NCBI GenBank assembly: GCA_038400315.1
Contig: CP151667.1
Span: forward strand, 5,653,174 to 5,717,173
Source: Isosphaeraceae bacterium EP7
Lineage (GTDB): Bacteria; Planctomycetota; Planctomycetia; Isosphaerales; Isosphaeraceae
Direction of reading: 5' to 3'
Length of the DNA: 64,000 nucleotides
A program made the position numbers and the translations under genes. Below are positions 4,455 through 14,177 of this stretch, one piece after another; position 1 is the first letter of the stretch; every line of letters begins with the position of its first letter. The notes under the pieces were generated by a model. The model was not told where the DNA came from, did no database searches, and worked only from the letters and a program-made list of their open reading frames with translations.

Positions 4455-5960
4455 TCATGCGTCGGCCCAGGCGGCCTGCGAGACGGGCTTCGGCCGGGTC
4501 GGTGGGCTCGGGACGTCGGCCGGTTTGGGGAAGCGGAGTATGAAGCGGGCGCCCGCGTCGGGACGACTCTCGACCCGGACCGTCCCGCCCCCGGCCGCGG
4601 CGATCCGCCTGACCACCGACAGCCCCAGCCCGACGCCGGGCCGGCCGACCATCCGGGCCCTGGGCGAGCGATAGAAGGGGTCGAAGACCGCCTCAGCCTC
4701 CTCGGCCGAGAGCCCGCAGCCGTGGTCCTCCACCACCAGCATGGTGGCATCGGCCTCGGGCCAGCAAGCGACACGGACCGACGTCCCGGTTTCGCTGTAT
4801 TTGAAGGCGTTGTCCACAAGGTTGTCTACCATCTGCGAGAACAAAGGGGGGTGGGCGTTGACCCTCGCCGGGGCGTCGGAAACCTCGACGCGGAGGTCGT
4901 CGCCGCGGTCGTGGTCGTGCCAGCGGCGGAGCTGCTCGGGGAGCCAGGTGGCCAGGTCGATCACCTCGGAGTTGGGGTGCACGGCCTCCGCCTCGGTGCG
5001 GGCCAGGAAGAGGAGCGACTCGACGATCTGCCGCAGCCGGCTGGCCTCTCGGTGGACCTGGTCGAGGGTCTGCTCGTACTCGTCGGCCGGCCTCGGGCGG
5101 CGACGGACCACCTCGATCAGGCTGAGCAGGCCGGCAATCGGGGTCCGTAGCTGGTGAGAGGCGTCGCCGGTGAATCGCCCCTGTCGGTCGAACGATTCAT
5201 GGACCCGGTCCAGCAGGCCGTTGAAGGCGCGGCCCAGGTCTTCCAGCTCGTCGCCCGTGCCGGGGGTGGGCAGGTGGTGCGAGGCGTCGGCAAGCTCCAT
5301 GCTCCGCGCCGAGGCGGCCATCTTCGTCAGCGGTGCAAGCGCTCTTCGGATGAAGCGGCGGCCGGCGACGGCGCAGGCCAGCCAGAGGGCTGTCGACACG
5401 CAAATCACCGCCATCGCCAGGTTCCGCAGGCTGGCCTCGGCGGGCGCCGGCGAGAGGCCGACGGTGAGGATCATGGTCGAGAAGACGGGGTCATCCTGGT
5501 CGTCGTCCTGATGCCCGCGGCCCAGCTTCAGCAGCTCGGGAAGCCGCAGGTGGCGGCGGGCCAGCCTCCAGCCCGGCAAGGTGCCGACCACCGTCGCGTC
5601 CCCCTCCCGGGGCGGCAGCACCGACGAGTTCGGATCGGGCGGGGCGAAGCTGCTTTTGAACGAGTTCACCGATTGGTCGAGGATCCGCCCGTTCGCAAGC
5701 TGGATCGCCCAGCGCACGTCCTCGACGTCGGGCTCCAGGCCCAGCAAGAGCCGCCGGTCCTCGGGCTCCCACTCCAGGCCCTCGGTCTCGACGTCCACCG
5801 CCGCCTCCAGGGTGTCGAGCGCCTGCTCCAGCCGGTCGTCGAGCTGGCGGGTCAGGTATGACGCCCCCAGGGAGTAGATGGCGCCCGAGAAGCCGATGAG
5901 CACCGCCGCCAGGGCCGCGAGGAAGAAGACCGACAGCCGAGTGGTCAGGCTCATGTTCAT
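4455..5960 (-). CDS. Two-component sensor histidine kinase
   Basis: 501 residues: a first membrane segment (about 8-32), a periplasmic region of ~150 residues, a second membrane segment (VICVSTALWLACAV), a HAMP linker (RRALAPLTKMA), the HisKA box with phosphoacceptor His in GDASHQLRTPIAG, and an HATPase_c domain with N box (NLVDNAFKYSE), G1 (VVEDHGCGL) and G2 (GVGLGLSVVRRI). Its ATG overlaps the response regulator stop as ATGA, so translation of the pair is coupled. It is an EnvZ/OmpR-class inner-membrane kinase that would phosphorylate the adjacent regulator. The stimulus is not evident. Confidence 0.95.
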   Translation of the reverse strand: MNMSLTTRLSVFFLAALAAVLIGFSGAIYSLGASYLTRQLDDRLEQALDTLEAAVDVETEGLEWEPEDRRLLLGLEPDVEDVRWAIQLANGRILDQSVNSFKSSFAPPDPNSSVLPPREGDATVVGTLPGWRLARRHLRLPELLKLGRGHQDDDQDDPVFSTMILTVGLSPAPAEASLRNLAMAVICVSTALWLACAVAGRRFIRRALAPLTKMAASARSMELADASHHLPTPGTGDELEDLGRAFNGLLDRVHESFDRQGRFTGDASHQLRTPIAGLLSLIEVVRRRPRPADEYEQTLDQVHREASRLRQIVESLLFLARTEAEAVHPNSEVIDLATWLPEQLRRWHDHDRGDDLRVEVSDAPARVNAHPPLFSQMVDNLVDNAFKYSETGTSVRVACWPEADATMLVVEDHGCGLSAEEAEAVFDPFYRSPRARMVGRPGVGLGLSVVRRIAAAGGGTVRVESRPDAGARFILRFPKPADVPSPPTRPKPVSQAAWADA

Positions 5961-6658
5961 GACGTCTCCTTCGCCGCCGCGGCGGGCCCCTCGCCCAGCA
6001 CGTAGCCCCGGCCCCTCAGGGTGTGGATCAGCCGAGGGCCGTGCGCCTCGAGCTTCCGCCGCAGCTCGAAGACGTGGACCTCAAGGCTGTTGGAGATCCC
6101 GTCGTGACGCTCGTCCCAGACATGCTCATAAATCCTCGTCCTGGAGAGCACCTGGCCCGAATTTCGCATCAGGAAGACCAGCAGGGCGTACTCCTTGGCG
6201 GTCAGGTCGACCGCGCGGCCCGCACGAAGGACGCGCTGGCTGGCCAGGTCGAGGCTGATGTCCGAGAAGTCGAGCGTAGTGCCCGATCGACCCTCGCTCC
6301 GACGCATCAGCGCGCGGCAGCGTGCCAGCAGCTCCTCGAAGGCGAAGGGCTTGCTCAGATAGTCGTCCGCCCCGCCATCGAGCCCCCGGACCCGGTCGGA
6401 GACGGCATCCCGCGCGGTGAGGAACAGGACGGGCGTCTCGCGGTCGCGCTGGCGGAACCGCTTCAGGACCGTCAGGCCGTCCTGCCCCGGCAGCCACCAG
6501 TCCAGCACGACGAGGTCCCAGCCCCCGCCCGCCAGGGCCGCCCAGGCCGCGTCGCCGTCGGCGGCGTGCTCGACGACGAAGCCCTCTTCACGCAGCCCCC
6601 GCACCAGGGATGACGCGATCAGCTCATCGTCCTCGACCAGCAGGATGCGGATCCCCAT
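5957..6658 (-). CDS. OmpR/PhoB family response regulator
   Basis: 233 residues. The receiver domain shows the acidic pocket (LLVEDDE), phosphoacceptor Asp53 (VVLDWWLPG), a Thr/Ser switch (LFLTAR) and the conserved Lys (DDYLSKPF). The C-terminal winged helix is the OmpR type (LTAKEYALLVFLMRNSGQVLS, SNSLEVHVFELRRKLE, TLRGRGYVL). The ATG at 6658 was chosen because it opens directly with the receiver domain and follows an AAGGGGGG site; the open frame extends 37 codons further without homology. It overlaps the kinase gene by 4 bp. Confidence 0.96.
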   Translation of the reverse strand: MGIRILLVEDDELIASSLVRGLREEGFVVEHAADGDAAWAALAGGGWDLVVLDWWLPGQDGLTVLKRFRQRDRETPVLFLTARDAVSDRVRGLDGGADDYLSKPFAFEELLARCRALMRRSEGRSGTTLDFSDISLDLASQRVLRAGRAVDLTAKEYALLVFLMRNSGQVLSRTRIYEHVWDERHDGISNSLEVHVFELRRKLEAHGPRLIHTLRGRGYVLGEGPAAAAKETS

Positions 6659-6728
6659 TTTCGGCCCCCCTTCGGCCTTAACCCACAAGGCCGTCCACCC
6701 CACGCATTTTACCCGGAAAAGGCCGCAA

Positions 6729-6950
6729 TCACATCCAGCGGGGAGCCTCGTCGCCGTCCCGACCCGCAAGCAGGCCCAGCCGCCTCAGCTCGGCCTCATC
6801 CTCGGCGGGCTCGCAACCGGCCAGGCCCATCCGGCCCAGGTCGCTCCAGGACTCGACGGCCGGGGGCGAGGCGACGACGTCGGACGGGCCATCGGCGGTC
6901 ATCGGGGGCTGCATGTCGCGGTCGGTGATCTGGACGAAGCGAAAGAACAT
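6729..6950 (-). CDS. Small hypothetical protein upstream of the two-component genes
   Basis: 73 residues, acidic, no membrane segment and no family recognised. An ideal ribosome binding site (GGAGG, 8 bp before the ATG) supports it as a real gene. It lies 70 bp upstream of the response regulator and 51 bp downstream of another small gene on the same strand, so all four may form one transcript. The function is unknown. Confidence 0.55.
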   Translation of the reverse strand: MFFRFVQITDRDMQPPMTADGPSDVVASPPAVESWSDLGRMGLAGCEPAEDEAELRRLGLLAGRDGDEAPRWM

Positions 6951-7636: not shown

Positions 7637-8905
7637 TCAGGCGGCAGGAGCGGCCAGGAGACGGAGAATCCCCGCTCGTGCAGGAAGCCTCGATGCAACG
7701 GACGGCCGGCATAGGCGCCGAGCGGGCCTGGCGAGCGGCTTCGCAGTCAAAGCGGCCACGTTCAGGCCGACGAGCGAGCGGGCCAGGCGGCGGAACAGGC
7801 CCGACAGGTGGCTTCGTTCGGCGAATCGGGTCGGGACAGCTTGATGGGTTCGTTCTGTGCGGAGGACCGGGGCGGATTGTGGCTGGATTCCCGCCTGTTC
7901 CACGTCACCGGGCGGCTGGGAGTGGCCGCTTTGTTCCGAGGAGTTCCCCCGATCGGGACCGGATGCGGGGGGCACGGGCTCGTGGTCGGGGGCCGGGTCG
8001 GTGTCGGGGAATTCGCGGGCGGGCGGACGGACGTAGGAGGTGTCGCGGGGCCGCTCGCGGTAGTCGTCGGACATGGTCAGGGGCGCGGTCTCGCGTCGCT
8101 GGCGCCCCTTTTGCAGCATGTCCAGGGCCCACCGCTGGCGGCGGAAGCTGGCCGTCTCGTAGCGCCGGAGCAGGACGAGCGTCGGGTCGTCGACGGCGAT
8201 CAGTCCCATCGACGTCGCCTCGCGCAAGTCTTCATCGATCTCGTCGAGCATCCCCTCTTTGCGGTCGTAAAGCCCTTCCAGCTCGCCCTCGACCAGCTCA
8301 CGCAGGTGGGACAGTGTCTCTTCTCCCTCGTCCGCATTGAGCGGGCTGTCCAGCTCTCGCAGCTCGGCGGCGATGCCCAGCAGGTCGTGGGCCAGGCCCT
8401 TCTGCTCGGCGGTCCAGCCCCCGTTCTTGTCGAGGCCTTTGCCAAGAGCCCGCCAGCGAGCAATCAGCCAGTCGCACCCGGCCGAGGTCGTCGCCAGCCG
8501 CGCCGCCACCTCGTCGGGCCGGTCCGCCAGGGTCCGCCCCAGCTTCGCCGCCTCGGCCTTGCGCTCGTCGCCCCAGCAGGCAACCGCGCGTCTCGCCCGG
8601 ACATCCCGCACCAGCCGCTCCTCGATCCGGCACCGGTCGATCCGCACGCCCTCGATCGCGATCGTCTCGACCAGCCCCATCTCGAACGCGTTCATCGGCC
8701 TGAGCGACGAGACCAGCTGCTCGCCCCGCTCCTGTGCGGCCTGCGCCTCGCATTCGGGAACAACCACGCCACTGCCCGCCAGCCCGTGAATCAGGCTGTT
8801 CCGGCGTGATTTCTCCTTCCCCTCGGCGGTCCTCGGCCCGGTGCTGCGCTGAGCATTGCGTCGGTTGGCGTCGATGCGCCGCTGGCTGACTTCGAGCTTG
8901 CCCAT
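7637..8905 (-). CDS. Hypothetical protein with STGPRT-type N-terminal motif
   Basis: 422 residues. The N-terminus reads RRIDANRRNAQRSTGPRTA followed by EGK, RRNSLIHGL. I recognise this motif as very common among unannotated planctomycete proteins, but I know of no assigned function. The middle (about 90-300) is helical and charged, with RRYETASFRRQRWALDMLQKG near its end. The tail after about 310 is proline/arginine-rich and looks disordered. The motif is basic and could bind nucleic acid; that is speculation. The gene is divergent from the putative toxin gene at 9225, with 319 bp between the starts. Confidence 0.7.
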   Translation of the reverse strand: MGKLEVSQRRIDANRRNAQRSTGPRTAEGKEKSRRNSLIHGLAGSGVVVPECEAQAAQERGEQLVSSLRPMNAFEMGLVETIAIEGVRIDRCRIEERLVRDVRARRAVACWGDERKAEAAKLGRTLADRPDEVAARLATTSAGCDWLIARWRALGKGLDKNGGWTAEQKGLAHDLLGIAAELRELDSPLNADEGEETLSHLRELVEGELEGLYDRKEGMLDEIDEDLREATSMGLIAVDDPTLVLLRRYETASFRRQRWALDMLQKGRQRRETAPLTMSDDYRERPRDTSYVRPPAREFPDTDPAPDHEPVPPASGPDRGNSSEQSGHSQPPGDVEQAGIQPQSAPVLRTERTHQAVPTRFAERSHLSGLFRRLARSLVGLNVAALTAKPLARPARRLCRPSVASRLPARAGILRLLAAPAA

Positions 8906-9184: not shown

Positions 9185-9213
9185 TTGATTTTGTACATAC
9201 ACCGCCGTACAAT
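9185..9213 (+). promoter_or_regulatory. Sigma70-like promoter with embedded operator-like inverted repeat
   Basis: A -35-like TTGATT (9185-9190) and a -10-like TACAAT (9208-9213) are exactly 17 bp apart. A perfect inverted repeat, TTGTAC (9191-9196) and GTACAA (9207-9212) with 10 bp between, fills the spacer and overlaps the -10. The layout suggests a repressor that excludes RNA polymerase, as in autoregulated toxin-antitoxin operons. The first downstream ATG (9225) would be only about 5 nt from the expected start point. Confidence 0.6.
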
Positions 9214-9224
9214 CCTATTCTGTC

Positions 9225-9557
9225 ATGACGAAAGGATCTCAGGGCCGGCCGATGGGCTTCAAGCAAACTCGCCGGGCCCTGATCGAGGCCTTGCTGGCTC
9301 GTCGCATCGAGTTCGAAGACCGGCGGGATGCGGGAAGCAAGAATCTCCTCTATACCGGCGAGGTCACACCGGAGTTCGTCGTTGAGTTGCTACTCCGTTG
9401 CACAGGCGACCAACACTCGACGAGCCGGCACCATATGGATCGAGACCAGATCGTCGACATTTTCAAGGTCCCGAATGATGGCGTCCGTTGGTATATCAAG
9501 TCATATCTCGTCGAGGACGACGGGGTCCTGGCGATCTTCATCAGCGTGCATCCTTGA
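9225..9557 (+). CDS. Putative MqsR-like toxin (mRNA interferase fold)
   Basis: 110 residues (101 if the ATG at 9252 is used, which has a CAGGG before it). By-eye comparison with MqsR shows the same order: an N-terminal helix (RRALIEALLARR), then LLYTGEVTPEFVVELLLRC, a D-rich segment ending in DQIVDIFKV (MqsR: TIWQDVYRP), then RWYIKSYL and LAIFISVH (MqsR: VYLKITV, LIVSFKE). Tyr90 would align with the MqsR catalytic Tyr81. MqsR-family toxins cleave mRNA. The next gene, 28 bp downstream, has a YgiT/MqsA-like zinc finger, which supports a toxin-antitoxin pair. Similarity is at pattern level only, so another small RelE-like fold remains possible. Confidence 0.55.
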   Translation: MTKGSQGRPMGFKQTRRALIEALLARRIEFEDRRDAGSKNLLYTGEVTPEFVVELLLRCTGDQHSTSRHHMDRDQIVDIFKVPNDGVRWYIKSYLVEDDGVLAIFISVHP

Positions 9558-9585
9558 AGACGGTCAACTCCCGGGAGGCAGGGCG

Positions 9586-10239
9586 ATGAGGTTGTTTCAG
9601 CCGGGCGATCGATCGGTGGGCATTTGCCAGCACTGTCGGTGCAAGGTCCGGACGGTCATGAAGTACGTCGACTTCACGCCGGCCGGGACCGACGCGATTG
9701 TCCCCGACGTCCTGCTCGGCATCTGCGAGAGGTGCGACAATGTGGTCGGCATCCCGTACCAGTCGACCCCGAAGATCAACGAACATCGCGCAGCCGCCGC
9801 CCACACCCAGGAGAACATCGAGGCCCGCGTCCCCAGGTCACTGGAGGAAGCCCTCGAGCTTGTCACGGCATCGGTCGGCGGCACGCATAAAGAATTCCGG
9901 CCTGCCATGATGCGTTATTATTTGAATCAGGTTTCGAAGGACCCGGAGGTCGCCAGGCAGGTCGAGGCCCGGTCGAAGGCAGACCTGGCGAGGGGGAAGG
10001 CGGATCGACGCCTGGCGCTGAAGGTCCCATCCCGTCAGTGGGCCGCCGCATGGACGGCTGCCAAGGCCGCGGGGATCACGCGGAATAGCCAGCTCTTGCG
10101 GGGTGTGGCTGCGCTGATCGCCGACGATTACGGGATCTCGCTCAAGGGCAAGGGCGGGGAGGGTTTGCCGGCGACCAAGCCTTCGAAGGGGGCCCGGGCA
10201 CGGATCGCGTTCCTTAAAGATCTCGTTGAATCGATCTGA
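9586..10239 (+). CDS. Putative antitoxin: YgiT-like zinc finger plus ribbon-helix-helix-like C-terminus
   Basis: 217 residues after a good GGGAGG site. Cysteines 14, 17, 19, 47 and 50 (CQHCRC ... CERC) followed by GIPYQSTPKI resemble the MqsA/YgiT zinc-binding domain. Instead of the MqsA Xre-type helix-turn-helix, residues about 141-183 read RRLALKVPSRQ, then a helix, a GITRNSQ turn, and a second helix LLRGVAALIADDYG. This is the strand-helix-helix pattern of ribbon-helix-helix DNA-binding domains. The middle (80-130) is helical and unassigned. It would neutralise the upstream protein and bind the inverted repeat at 9191-9212. The zinc finger is the firmer call; the ribbon-helix-helix assignment is inferred. 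Confidence 0.55.
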   Translation: MRLFQPGDRSVGICQHCRCKVRTVMKYVDFTPAGTDAIVPDVLLGICERCDNVVGIPYQSTPKINEHRAAAAHTQENIEARVPRSLEEALELVTASVGGTHKEFRPAMMRYYLNQVSKDPEVARQVEARSKADLARGKADRRLALKVPSRQWAAAWTAAKAAGITRNSQLLRGVAALIADDYGISLKGKGGEGLPATKPSKGARARIAFLKDLVESI

Positions 10240-10867: not shown

Positions 10868-11040
10868 CACCGTGCCCCGGAAAGGTTCGGCCGATTCGTC
10901 GAAAGTCCCTGAAAACTTCGGGCAGGCCAGGGCCCGATCGAATGCGGTGGTGCGCCCGGGGTTGAGGTCGGTATGATGGCGGTTTGGCCGGTGGGTCGGT
11001 ACGCGCGGTTGTCGGTCGGTGAGAGGGGTGGAGCTTGGAG

Positions 11041-11916
11041 ATGGGGATCGAGGGGGAAATCGAGTCGCTCGATTACCCGGTGGATAATGCTCCGATCCGG
11101 AGCCTGGTGCATCGCGGGCTCACCATCGAGGGGTATTCCAGGGCCGCGGTTCAGACCTACTGGCGCATCCCCGAGATGAAGCTGGGGTTCGACCTGGGGG
11201 TGCAGCCCTGGTCGTTCATGACCACGCCGACCTGGTTTTTGTCGCACACCCACCTCGACCACGTCGCCGCCCTGCCCGTCTACGTGGCCCGGCGGCGGAT
11301 GATGAAGATGGCCCCGCCGACGATTTACATGCCCGCCGACGCGGTCGAGCCGGTCGAGGCCCTGCTGCGGGCCTTCCAGCGGCTGGACCGGGGGCGGATG
11401 CCGGCGAACCTGGTCGGGCTGGTCGACGGGCAGGAGGTGAACCTGTCGCGCGAGCTGGTCGTGACGGCGTTCGACACCAAGCACACGATCCCGTCGCTGG
11501 GCTTCCTGGTCTGGGACCGCCGCCGCAAGCTGAAGGCCGAATACCAGGGGCTGCCCGAGGCCGAGATCCGCGACATCAGGCTCTCGGGCCTGGAGGTCTC
11601 CTCCGAGGTCCGGTTCCCGAAGCTTGCGTACATGGGGGACACCGCGCCGGCCGGGCTGGACCATTTCCCCGAGGTCTACAAGGCCGAGATCCTGATCATG
11701 GAGATGACCTTCGTCGCCCCCAACGAGCGCGCGTCGGTGATCCACAAGTACGGCCACACCCACCTGGACGACTTCCTGGCGCGGGCCGACCGGTTCGAGA
11801 ACGACCTGATCATCGCGTCGCACTACAGCACGCGGATGCACCCCGACCAGATCCAGCGCATCGTCGAGAAGCGCCTGCCCGAGAAGCTCAAGTCTCGACT
11901 GAAAGTCTGGCTGTAG
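11041..11916 (+). CDS. Metallo-beta-lactamase-fold hydrolase, RNase Z-like
   Basis: 291 residues from the ATG at 11041 (a TTG two codons earlier is possible). Signature motifs: SHTHLDH (HxHxDH metal site), TKHTIPSLGF histidine, AYMGDT aspartate, GHTHLDD, and a C-terminal ASHYSTR histidine. The order and length (~300) fit tRNA 3'-processing endonuclease RNase Z/ElaC and relatives. RNase Z would trim tRNA precursors in the cytoplasm, which matters here because the tRNA-Leu in this window lacks an encoded CCA. A related MBL enzyme with another substrate cannot be ruled out. Confidence 0.75.
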   Translation: MGIEGEIESLDYPVDNAPIRSLVHRGLTIEGYSRAAVQTYWRIPEMKLGFDLGVQPWSFMTTPTWFLSHTHLDHVAALPVYVARRRMMKMAPPTIYMPADAVEPVEALLRAFQRLDRGRMPANLVGLVDGQEVNLSRELVVTAFDTKHTIPSLGFLVWDRRRKLKAEYQGLPEAEIRDIRLSGLEVSSEVRFPKLAYMGDTAPAGLDHFPEVYKAEILIMEMTFVAPNERASVIHKYGHTHLDDFLARADRFENDLIIASHYSTRMHPDQIQRIVEKRLPEKLKSRLKVWL

Positions 11917-12841: not shown

Positions 12842-13897
12842 TCAACGGGCGGCGGGCGGGAGGAGATGAGTGCCGAGCCAGCGATAGGCGGGGATCTGGG
12901 CGGCCCGGAAGTACCTGAGGTCGTGATGGGCTTCGGGATTCTCGGTGAGGTCGACGGCGATGCCCCGACTCGCGGCCAGCCAGGCGAACGAGCGGGCCTG
13001 GGCGTCGAAGTTGTAGTTGTCCCGCCCCGGAAAATTGACGTAGATCTCGAGCTGACCCGGACGCAGGTCGGTCCGATTGATGAGGTCGTAGGGGTTATCG
13101 TGGGCGATCCTGGACAGGACGTCGGGGCCTGAGCCGTAGACGGGTCCCACATACCGCTTCACCCTGCGGGTGAGAAAACCGTGGTAGTAGCGGGCGATGA
13201 CCATCTCGGGGTCGTACTGATTGCGTTCGCGGAAGGTGGCGGGGTCGAAGTCGTCGCCGTAGCGGTCGTCGCAGGTGTTATAGAGCATGTTGAGCGGGCC
13301 GGCGAGGGTGGCGACGACGCCGAAGAGGTCGCGATGCCGCAGGGCGATGGCCATCGCGCCGTAGCCGCCTGCGGAGATGCCGAGCAGGGCATGCGCGCGG
13401 GCCTCGGGGCGAATCGGGTAGGTTCGCACGAGGAAGGGAACGACCTCGTCGATGAGGTGGTCCTCGAAGCGGCCGCCCAGGCCGTTGATCCAAAACGAAT
13501 GGGTGGCGTTGAGCCTATTCTTGCCCTCGTAGGTGCCGTCGGGCGCGGCGATGATCGCGGGACCGAGCTCGCCCCGGTCCATCATCCGGTCGAGCTGCTT
13601 GAGGACGACGGGATCGAGGAGGCCGTGCTCGTCGACGTCGGCGCTGTGGAGCAAGACGATCAGGGGGTAGGAGAGGGCCGGGTTGTATCCGGGCGGAAGG
13701 TAGACGTAGAGGTCTCGGGGCCCGCCCAGCACATTCGAGACGAGCCTGCGGTCGGCCCCGTGATTGGACGTGTAGTCGACCACCCGGCCGCAGAGCTTGC
13801 CGTTGAGATGATCCAGGCCGATCGGTTCGAACAGTTGAGCACGGGCCGGGGACGCCGTCGCGGCCAGGAGGGCGAGGGCCGCCACGAGTCTTCGCAT
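12842..13897 (-). CDS. Secreted esterase-family alpha/beta hydrolase
   Basis: 351 residues with a signal peptide (MRRLVAALALLAATASPARA). The fold motifs are those of the esterase D / antigen 85-like group: VYLPPGY, PLIVLLHS, and the nucleophile elbow GISAGGYGAM; the late DLTENPEAHHDLRYF carries candidate catalytic histidines. The start at 13897 is backed by AAGGA 8 bp upstream; the open frame extends 93 codons without homology. It is probably a carboxyl-ester or feruloyl/acyl esterase acting in the periplasm. It converges on the zinc-finger gene with 77 bp between stops. Confidence 0.8.
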   Translation of the reverse strand: MRRLVAALALLAATASPARAQLFEPIGLDHLNGKLCGRVVDYTSNHGADRRLVSNVLGGPRDLYVYLPPGYNPALSYPLIVLLHSADVDEHGLLDPVVLKQLDRMMDRGELGPAIIAAPDGTYEGKNRLNATHSFWINGLGGRFEDHLIDEVVPFLVRTYPIRPEARAHALLGISAGGYGAMAIALRHRDLFGVVATLAGPLNMLYNTCDDRYGDDFDPATFRERNQYDPEMVIARYYHGFLTRRVKRYVGPVYGSGPDVLSRIAHDNPYDLINRTDLRPGQLEIYVNFPGRDNYNFDAQARSFAWLAASRGIAVDLTENPEAHHDLRYFRAAQIPAYRWLGTHLLPPAAR

Positions 13898-14177
13898 TGA
13901 TCGATCCTTCGACCGTGACGAGGCGTGAGATTCATCCGATAACCCGGACAAGATCGGACGTGAGGGGGCGACCTCGCGAGCGATTTTGGCCGGGACGCCG
14001 AGTCCCCCGCGAATTCCAGGCTCGCGCGGGGCAAAACCGTCGTTCGGTGATCGGGGCTCACGCCGGCGACGGGCGGCAACAAGGCCCGCACGTCCGCGAC
14101 CGATGCCGGAAATCGTGCATGGTTCATGGCAGCTTGAATCGACCGCTCCGTTCGGATGACGGTCGAGATCGCTCAAA

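What the first reader, a model, noticed from the sequence alone, without database searches (positions are those of the whole stretch)
9185..10239. Putative toxin-antitoxin module pairing an MqsR-like toxin with a zinc-finger/ribbon-helix-helix partner
Two plus-strand genes, 28 bp apart, behind their own promoter. The first (110 aa) follows the MqsR layout by eye (DQIVDIFKV, RWYIKSYL, LAIFISVH). The second (217 aa) has a YgiT/MqsA-like zinc finger (C14, C17, C19, C47, C50; then IPYQSTPKI), but where MqsA has an Xre-type helix-turn-helix this protein seems to have a ribbon-helix-helix domain (about 141-183). MqsRA is known with toxin first and antitoxin second; a zinc-finger/ribbon-helix-helix antitoxin of this size would be an unusual architecture.
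Basis: partly seen in the sequence, partly recalled or inferred. Interest (0 to 1): 0.8.

Follow-up and report, generated by a model that had tools for sequence, protein, structure and literature searches.

The report
MqsR-like toxin with rebuilt antitoxin
A planctomycete carries a two-gene module, found in related form in many other bacteria, that looks like the known MqsR poison-and-antidote pair except that the antidote protein has exchanged its usual DNA-binding part for a different, doubled one that appears to sit on its own conserved DNA switch.

Summary
In detail: two plus-strand genes (110 and 217 aa, 28 bp apart) behind a promoter-like site. No convincing match to a curated family was found, but the pair is real. 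Anchored on the first gene alone, 56 of 57 loci from several phyla have the second gene directly downstream; the exception ends at a contig edge. AlphaFold models are confident. The first protein's best solved match is E. coli MqsR (Z 8.2, next 5.5). The second has an MqsA-like Cys4 zinc domain (Z 6.0; profile E 6e-6) followed by two ribbon-helix-helix units in one chain, closest to the F-plasmid relaxosome protein TraY (Z 8.5). A palindrome (TAC-N10-GTA) lies upstream of the first gene in 56 of 57 loci (chance 0.6-3%); in the window it fills the promoter spacer.

Best reading: an undescribed type II toxin-antitoxin family, in which an MqsR-fold, probably RNase, toxin is neutralised by a zinc domain whose usual helix-turn-helix partner is replaced by an intramolecular ribbon-helix-helix autorepressor. 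Sequence profiles alone do not show kinship of the toxin to MqsR. Toxicity, neutralisation, RNase activity and DNA binding were not tested.

The parts
9185..9190 (+). -35-like hexamer TTGATT
   Evidence: in relatives a hexamer with 4 or more of 6 matches lies 15-18 nt before the right half-site in 38 of 56 loci, against 13% at random positions
9192..9211 (.). putative operator palindrome TGTAC-N10-GTACA
   Evidence: TAC-N10-GTA upstream in 56 of 57 loci; this exact palindrome occurs once in the 7.2 Mb genome
9208..9213 (+). -10-like hexamer TACAAT, overlapping the right half of the palindrome
9225..9557 (+). MqsR-fold toxin candidate, 110 aa (alternative start 9252, 101 aa)
9586..10239 (+). 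antitoxin candidate, 217 aa: zinc domain plus tandem RHH
9619..9810 (+). MqsA-N-like Cys4 zinc domain (residues 12-75)
   Evidence: VIA Z 6.0 to MqsA 3gn5_B over 62 residues; hhalign E 6.2e-6 to MqsA profile
9808..9939 (+). RHH unit 1 (residues 75-118, strand-helix-helix)
   Evidence: model secondary structure
10000..10128 (+).
   Evidence: model secondary structure; R142 34/34, S at 144 33/34, K at 146 32/34 in relatives

Best explanation
A two-gene, autoregulated type II toxin-antitoxin operon of a family not described in the papers searched. The first gene encodes a small MqsR-fold protein, probably an RNA-cleaving toxin. The second encodes its antitoxin: an N-terminal Cys4 zinc domain of the MqsA-N type, inferred to clamp the toxin, joined to two ribbon-helix-helix units that pair within one chain (as in TraY) and are inferred to bind a 20-bp palindrome lying between -35 and -10, shutting the promoter. 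Shown computationally: conserved pair, predicted folds, conserved palindrome over the promoter. Inferred: toxicity, RNase activity, neutralisation by the zinc domain, DNA binding. In the planctomycete it is probably an acquired element.
For: Adjacency: 56 of 57 loci fetched by the toxin have the partner; 33 of these are left after clustering partners below 85% identity, with L007 and L014 left out by hand. Toxin model pLDDT 93.7: MqsR is the first PDB match, Foldseek E 1.6e-3, prob 1.00, TM 0.61/0.63, VIA Z 8.2 over 89 residues at 3.3 A, next BrnT Z 5.5. Partner model pLDDT 93.0, pTM 0.76: residues 12-75 match MqsA-N (Z 6.0, 62 residues), 76-213 match a relaxosome chain taken as TraY (Z 8.5, 100 residues, 3.1 A); hhalign to MqsA E 6.2e-6, prob 85%, zinc domain only. 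Toxin Y81, K83, H100, W80, S98, K30, G36 and partner C14/C17/C47/C50 identical in 34 of 34. Operator: TAC-N10-GTA 56 of 57, TACG-N8-CGTA 53 of 57, the latter 0 times in 338,187 control bases. Decay asymmetry: in 8 copies (L007, L009, L010, L014, L015, L016, L028, L029) the toxin gene is damaged and the partner frame full length. Precedent: in a tested MqsR:PanA system the zinc domain alone neutralises MqsR (PMC10440598, passages).
Against: No experiment. The toxin profile does not show homology to MqsR by sequence (hhalign E 0.024, probability 2%) and no member meets the MqsR Pfam model. Of MqsR's two essential residues only Tyr81 has a counterpart in the (weak) alignment; opposite Lys56 stands His or Tyr (17 and 17 of 34). 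Foldseek gave no PDB match of the partner below E 0.001, and Z 6.0 for the zinc domain is within the range the tool calls common. The operator pattern was chosen after looking at the sequences. Four loci keep partner fragments without any toxin (L011, L012, L013, L017), where the partner is damaged too.
Confidence: 0.8

Rival explanations
1. A divergent member of ordinary MqsRA: MqsR toxin with a zinc finger/XRE helix-turn-helix antitoxin whose second half was misread.
For: Toxin-first order, toxin fold, Cys4 zinc domain.
Against: The confident partner model has strand-helix-helix twice and no XRE domain match; the profile match to MqsA stops after the zinc domain. Members reach the MqsA-type NCBIfam models only weakly (4 of 34, best E 0.012 and 0.035).
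Confidence: 0.06
2. A BrnTA-like module: BECR-fold toxin first, RHH antitoxin second, with a zinc domain added.
For: BrnT is the second structural match of the toxin (Z 5.5); BrnA has a C-terminal RHH domain (PMC11980606 passage); one of 34 partners matches a BrnA model at E 0.13.
Against: MqsR fits clearly better (Z 8.2 over 89 residues against 5.5 over 70); no BrnT family match among 34 toxins; the partner has a zinc domain and two RHH units.
Confidence: 0.06
3. A conserved, autoregulated gene pair that is not toxic: a regulator or an inactive former toxin-antitoxin pair used for another task.
For: No function was tested. An annotated but non-toxic plasmid pair (MtvTA) has been reported (PMC11826091, abstract start in a search listing).
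Against: Invariant surface-type residues W80, Y81, K83, S98 and H100; repeated damage of the first gene only; presence on plasmids and virus-like contigs.
Confidence: 0.1

Closest known systems
MqsRA of E. coli (MqsR PF15723; MqsA, YgiT)
   Same: Toxin fold, toxin-first order, N-terminal Cys4 zinc domain of the antitoxin, antitoxin folded throughout with the DNA-binding part at the C-terminus (PMC2791442 passages).
   Different: Two RHH units replace the XRE helix-turn-helix; partner is 197-217 aa against 131; toxin fails the MqsR Pfam model; the MqsR residue Lys56 is not conserved in the weak alignment; palindrome TACGA-N6-TCGTA.
MqsR:PanA (zinc domain-HTH-Panacea antitoxins)
   Same: An MqsA-type zinc domain fused to further domains; there the zinc domain alone neutralises MqsR (PMC10440598 passages).
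   Different: No HTH or Panacea match here; tandem RHH instead.
TraY of the F plasmid and DndE (tandem RHH proteins)
   Same: Two RHH units in one chain acting as a pseudo-dimer (Z 8.5 and 5.4; passages of PMC12117103 and PMC10853773).
   Different: Those act at the transfer origin or in DNA phosphorothioation; neither carries the zinc domain nor pairs with an MqsR-fold gene.
BrnTA
   Same: BECR-fold toxin with an RHH antitoxin, toxin second-best match (Z 5.5).
   Different: Weaker toxin match, a single C-terminal RHH, no zinc domain (PMC11980606 passages).

Membership tests
MqsRA | toxin reaches the MqsR_toxin Pfam model PF15723 | tested here: not met
   no listed match for the window toxin or any of 34 members; 0 of 21 related genomes, though that search's controls also stayed silent
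MqsRA | toxin has the MqsR fold | tested here: met
   3hi2_B first by Foldseek (E 1.6e-3) and by VIA (Z 8.2, 89 residues, 3.3 A)
MqsRA | sequence-profile kinship of toxin to MqsR | tested here: inconclusive
   hhalign E 0.024, probability 2%
MqsRA | essential Lys56 and Tyr81 (PMC9636575, passages) | tested here: inconclusive
   Tyr81 counterpart 34 of 34; opposite Lys56 His 17 and Tyr 17 of 34, in a weak alignment
MqsRA | toxin gene before antitoxin gene | tested here: met
   56 of 57 loci; the other is cut by the contig end
MqsRA | antitoxin N-terminal Cys4 zinc domain | tested here: met
   four Cys in 34 of 34; hhalign E 6.2e-6; Z 6.0; zinc binding itself not tested
MqsRA | antitoxin C-terminal XRE helix-turn-helix | tested here: not met
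   model shows two strand-helix-helix units at 75-118 and 139-181; MqsA profile match ends after the zinc domain
tandem RHH fold (TraY, DndE) | two RHH units in one chain | tested here: met
   secondary structure of the model and Z 8.5 over 100 residues
BrnTA | toxin and antitoxin match the BrnT/BrnA families | tested here: inconclusive
   no BrnT Pfam match in 34 toxins; BrnA model E 0.13 in 1 of 34 partners; BrnT fold second at Z 5.5
type II toxin-antitoxin system | toxin arrests growth and the protein antitoxin neutralises it | not testable with these tools
   only indirect: pairing, operator, toxin-first decay

The most novel reading that the evidence does not exclude
The MqsA zinc domain is a portable neutraliser that evolution has bolted onto unrelated DNA-binding heads. 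Here it sits on a monomeric tandem-RHH repressor that recognises one operator (TACGA-N6-TCGTA) kept from Pseudomonadota to Bdellovibrio-like bacteria and, in degenerate form, planctomycetes. The toxin branch uses His/Tyr chemistry (invariant Y81 and H100, H or Y at 55) in place of MqsR's Lys/Tyr pair.
Probability: 0.4. Interest if true: 0.75.

Novelty: new variant of a known kind. Interest (0 to 1): 0.62.

Why it matters
It would add a widespread family to the toxin-antitoxin catalogue that the profile libraries tried here did not recognise. It would also give a clean case of an antitoxin keeping its toxin-binding part while its DNA-binding part was replaced by another fold. The conserved operator makes repression directly testable, and the tandem RHH predicts an antitoxin that need not dimerise to bind DNA, which bears on how toxin level tunes repression in such systems.

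Tried and rejected
Led nowhere: single-protein scans of Pfam, NCBIfam, PHROGs and PADLOC and phmmer against the PDB; first genome-contig scan with the window toxin alone; window toxin against phages; profile search of the PDB by sequence (best 0.0092 for the toxin, to a repetitive phycobilisome-type match, and 0.43 for the partner, to a DUF1778 RHH protein, then CopG 1.1); MqsR Pfam family in related genomes (controls silent, so uninformative); one Pectobacterium copy as DNA against E. coli genomes (no match); PHROGs scans of both alignments (only isolated weak hits, best E 0.001).

Considered and rejected: ordinary MqsRA (no helix-turn-helix), BrnTA (weaker fold match), a single RHH unit (model shows two), C19 as a zinc ligand (not conserved). 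A regulon beyond the operon is not suggested by the exact palindrome, which occurs once in the genome, but looser sites were not searched. Prior description: nine paper searches listed none whose title or abstract start describes an MqsR-type toxin with a zinc/RHH antitoxin; passages of seven papers were read, none whole; subscription papers and preprints are not held.

Weak points of the counts: many loci are near relatives; 33 remain after clustering. and the alignments left out L007 and L014; the operator count left out L007. The window and L055 lack TACG-N8-CGTA but have the looser pattern; L045 also lacks it and L047 lacks both. Planctomycete searches scored only part of the first-look candidates per genome.

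Full report
Observation. The genome has 7,199,273 bases in 5 contigs and holds one copy of each gene. It is taken as a planctomycete because a genome of the same family (G003) carries the same pair, with protein sequences identical to those in a contig titled Planctomycetaceae bacterium (L055).

Library searches. For the window proteins there is no match worth the name in Pfam, NCBIfam, PHROGs or PADLOC, or in PDB sequences. Scanning 34 relatives of each gave only weak matches. For the partner, 4 of 34 members touch the YgiT finger (best E 0.012) and 4 the MqsA-type model (0.035), 1 the RHH_6 family (0.1), 1 a BrnA model (0.13), and one member a TetR-type regulator model at E 0.00062, which I take as chance. 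For the toxin the best is E 0.017 in Pfam, to an unrelated family, and none is MqsR.

Distribution. With the window toxin, plasmid records gave 8 matches in Acetobacter and Rhizobium at E up to 1. An alignment of four toxins then drew 49 genome-contig loci and 4 viral-contig loci. They are mostly alpha-, beta- and gammaproteobacteria (Rhizobium, Mesorhizobium, Acetobacter, Pseudomonas, Burkholderia, Paraburkholderia, Achromobacter, Rahnella, Pectobacterium), with Bdellovibrio-like, deltaproteobacterial, Eisenbacteria and planctomycete contigs. In the window's own family 2 of 45 genomes have the toxin and 3 of 45 a partner match, one of these a fragment without a toxin match. In a sample of 392 genomes of the phylum only the window's own has either. 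The toxin gene is 57% G+C against 67% for the window. Rare, AT-richer and found on plasmids elsewhere, it is probably acquired; that is inference.

Pairing. I looked downstream of the toxin for an ORF with two CxxC pairs in 57 loci (L018-L070, L006, L007, L008, L014), all of them fetched by toxin matches. 56 have it, at gaps from -4 to +70 bp; in L024 the held DNA ends 36 bases after the toxin. No partner is truncated among the 56 except L048, cut by its contig end. Distances between toxins and between partners correlate at 0.79 over 33 pairs (0 of 5000 permutations).

Toxin. Invariant in 34 of 34: K30, G36, W80, Y81, K83, S98, H100 (window numbering from MGF at 9252). H61 is kept in 33, H60 in 31, H69 in 32 (the window has D), and position 55 is H in 17 and Y in 17. 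The model (pLDDT 93.7, pTM 0.85) has the order helix, strand, helices, then a curved sheet of four strands. MqsR chain 3hi2_B leads Foldseek (E 1.6e-3, prob 1.00, TM 0.61/0.63) and VIA-align (Z 8.2, 89 residues, 3.3 A, 9% identity); then BrnT 5.5, a designed protein 5.1, another toxin complex 4.9. Against ten MqsR sequences hhalign is not significant (E 0.024, probability 2%), though it sets WYIK against VYLK and so Y81 against MqsR Tyr81. Lys56 and Tyr81 are the residues MqsR cannot lose (PMC9636575, passages). So the fold is MqsR's, the catalytic set only partly, and shared ancestry rests on structure.

Partner. The model (pLDDT 93.0, pTM 0.76) has a strand-rich segment 9-55 with the four cysteines, a helix 58-72, then strand 75-83, helix 84-96, helix 104-118, a linker helix, and strand 139-148, helix 149-161, helix 167-181, and a last helix. 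VIA-align puts residues 12-75 on MqsA-N (3gn5_B Z 6.0; 3hi2_C 5.9) and 76-213 on chains of F relaxosome entries (9f0x_G Z 8.5), then DndE (7x4e 5.4). I take those chains as TraY because the paper on that structure describes TraY as a monomer holding the whole RHH-dimer fold (PMC12117103, passages); DndE is described as a tandem RHH protein too (PMC10853773, passages). Foldseek alone gave nothing below E 0.001 in the PDB (MqsA first at 0.067) and one uncharacterised phage protein at 4.2e-7 in the viral library. The MqsA kinship of the zinc domain has independent support from profiles (E 6.2e-6, 71 columns, ending where the RHH part begins).

Operator. Upstream regions of the toxins share a palindrome. 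TAC-N10-GTA lies within 100 bases upstream to 20 downstream of the start in 56 of 57 loci (window included, L007 not used), against 20 occurrences in 338,187 flanking bases (0.6% per region) and a mean of 1.6 of 57 (maximum 7) in 200 shuffles. The stricter TACG-N8-CGTA is in 53 of 57 and never in the flanks. The pattern was read off these sequences first, so the controls measure chance, not choice. In the window the palindrome TGTACATACACCGCCGTACA (9192-9211) fills the space between -35 and -10 and overlaps the -10; it occurs once in the genome. In relatives a -10-like hexamer starts in the right half-site in 46 of 56 and a -35-like one lies 15-18 nt before it in 38 of 56, against 13% at random; both in 32 of 56. 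The distance from palindrome to the ATG at 9225 (15 nt) is like that of many relatives, that to 9252 (42 nt) is not, which favours 9225 though no relative shares the extra residues.

Decay. In L009, L010, L014, L015, L016, L028 and L029 the toxin frame is interrupted, shifted or rearranged while the partner is full length; in L007 the toxin's start codon is not ATG, GTG or TTG. Against this tidy picture, L011, L012, L013 and L017 hold only partner fragments and no toxin, the state expected late in decay. One search looked at 15 chosen loci, not all.

Mechanism. Shown by computation: conserved pair, two predicted folds, conserved palindrome over the promoter. Inferred: the toxin cleaves RNA; the zinc domain blocks it, as MqsA-N does for MqsR (PMC2791442 and PMC9636575, passages) and as the zinc domain of a PanA antitoxin does (PMC10440598, passages); the two RHH strands enter the major groove at a half-site and two antitoxin molecules cover the palindrome; toxin release follows loss of antitoxin.

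Known or new. A 2009 survey describes MqsR (YgiU) partners as two kinds of helix-turn-helix protein, one with a zinc finger (PMC2701414, passages); a 2023 network adds zinc-HTH-Panacea. None of the passages seen describes a zinc domain with RHH. Nine paper searches found no such description, in a library without most subscription papers. I file it as a new variant of a known kind: it works like MqsRA but fails two of its defining features (Pfam model, XRE domain).

Noticed in passing
L007, L009, L010, L014, L015, L016, L028, L029: Copies in Acetobacter, Rhizobium and Pseudomonas in which the toxin gene is broken or lacks a usual start while the partner is full length.
   Followed up: partly
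L011 4001-4186, L012 3001-3286, L013 3001-3429, L017 3001-3201: Partner fragments without a toxin in Cupriavidus metallidurans, Neorhizobium, Rhizobium gallicum and R. leguminosarum records; three keep mainly the zinc domain.
   Followed up: partly
L005 (genome G027): A 41-residue remnant of the zinc domain in another genome of the window's family, with no toxin match in that genome.
   Followed up: no
L069 254-2451: The pair lies about 90 bp behind a long ORF that reads by eye as a tyrosine-recombinase integrase, which suggests prophage cargo; no family search was run on that ORF.
   Followed up: no
BFVD A0A6J5L2R7: An uncharacterised 167-aa phage protein matches the partner model at Foldseek E 4.2e-7; its neighbours were not seen.
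   Followed up: no
window 7637-8905 (-), 5957-6769 (-), 11035-11916 (+), 12842-14176 (-): Neighbouring ORFs; by eye the second reads as a response regulator, the third as a metallo-hydrolase and the fourth as an esterase; none was searched.
   Followed up: no
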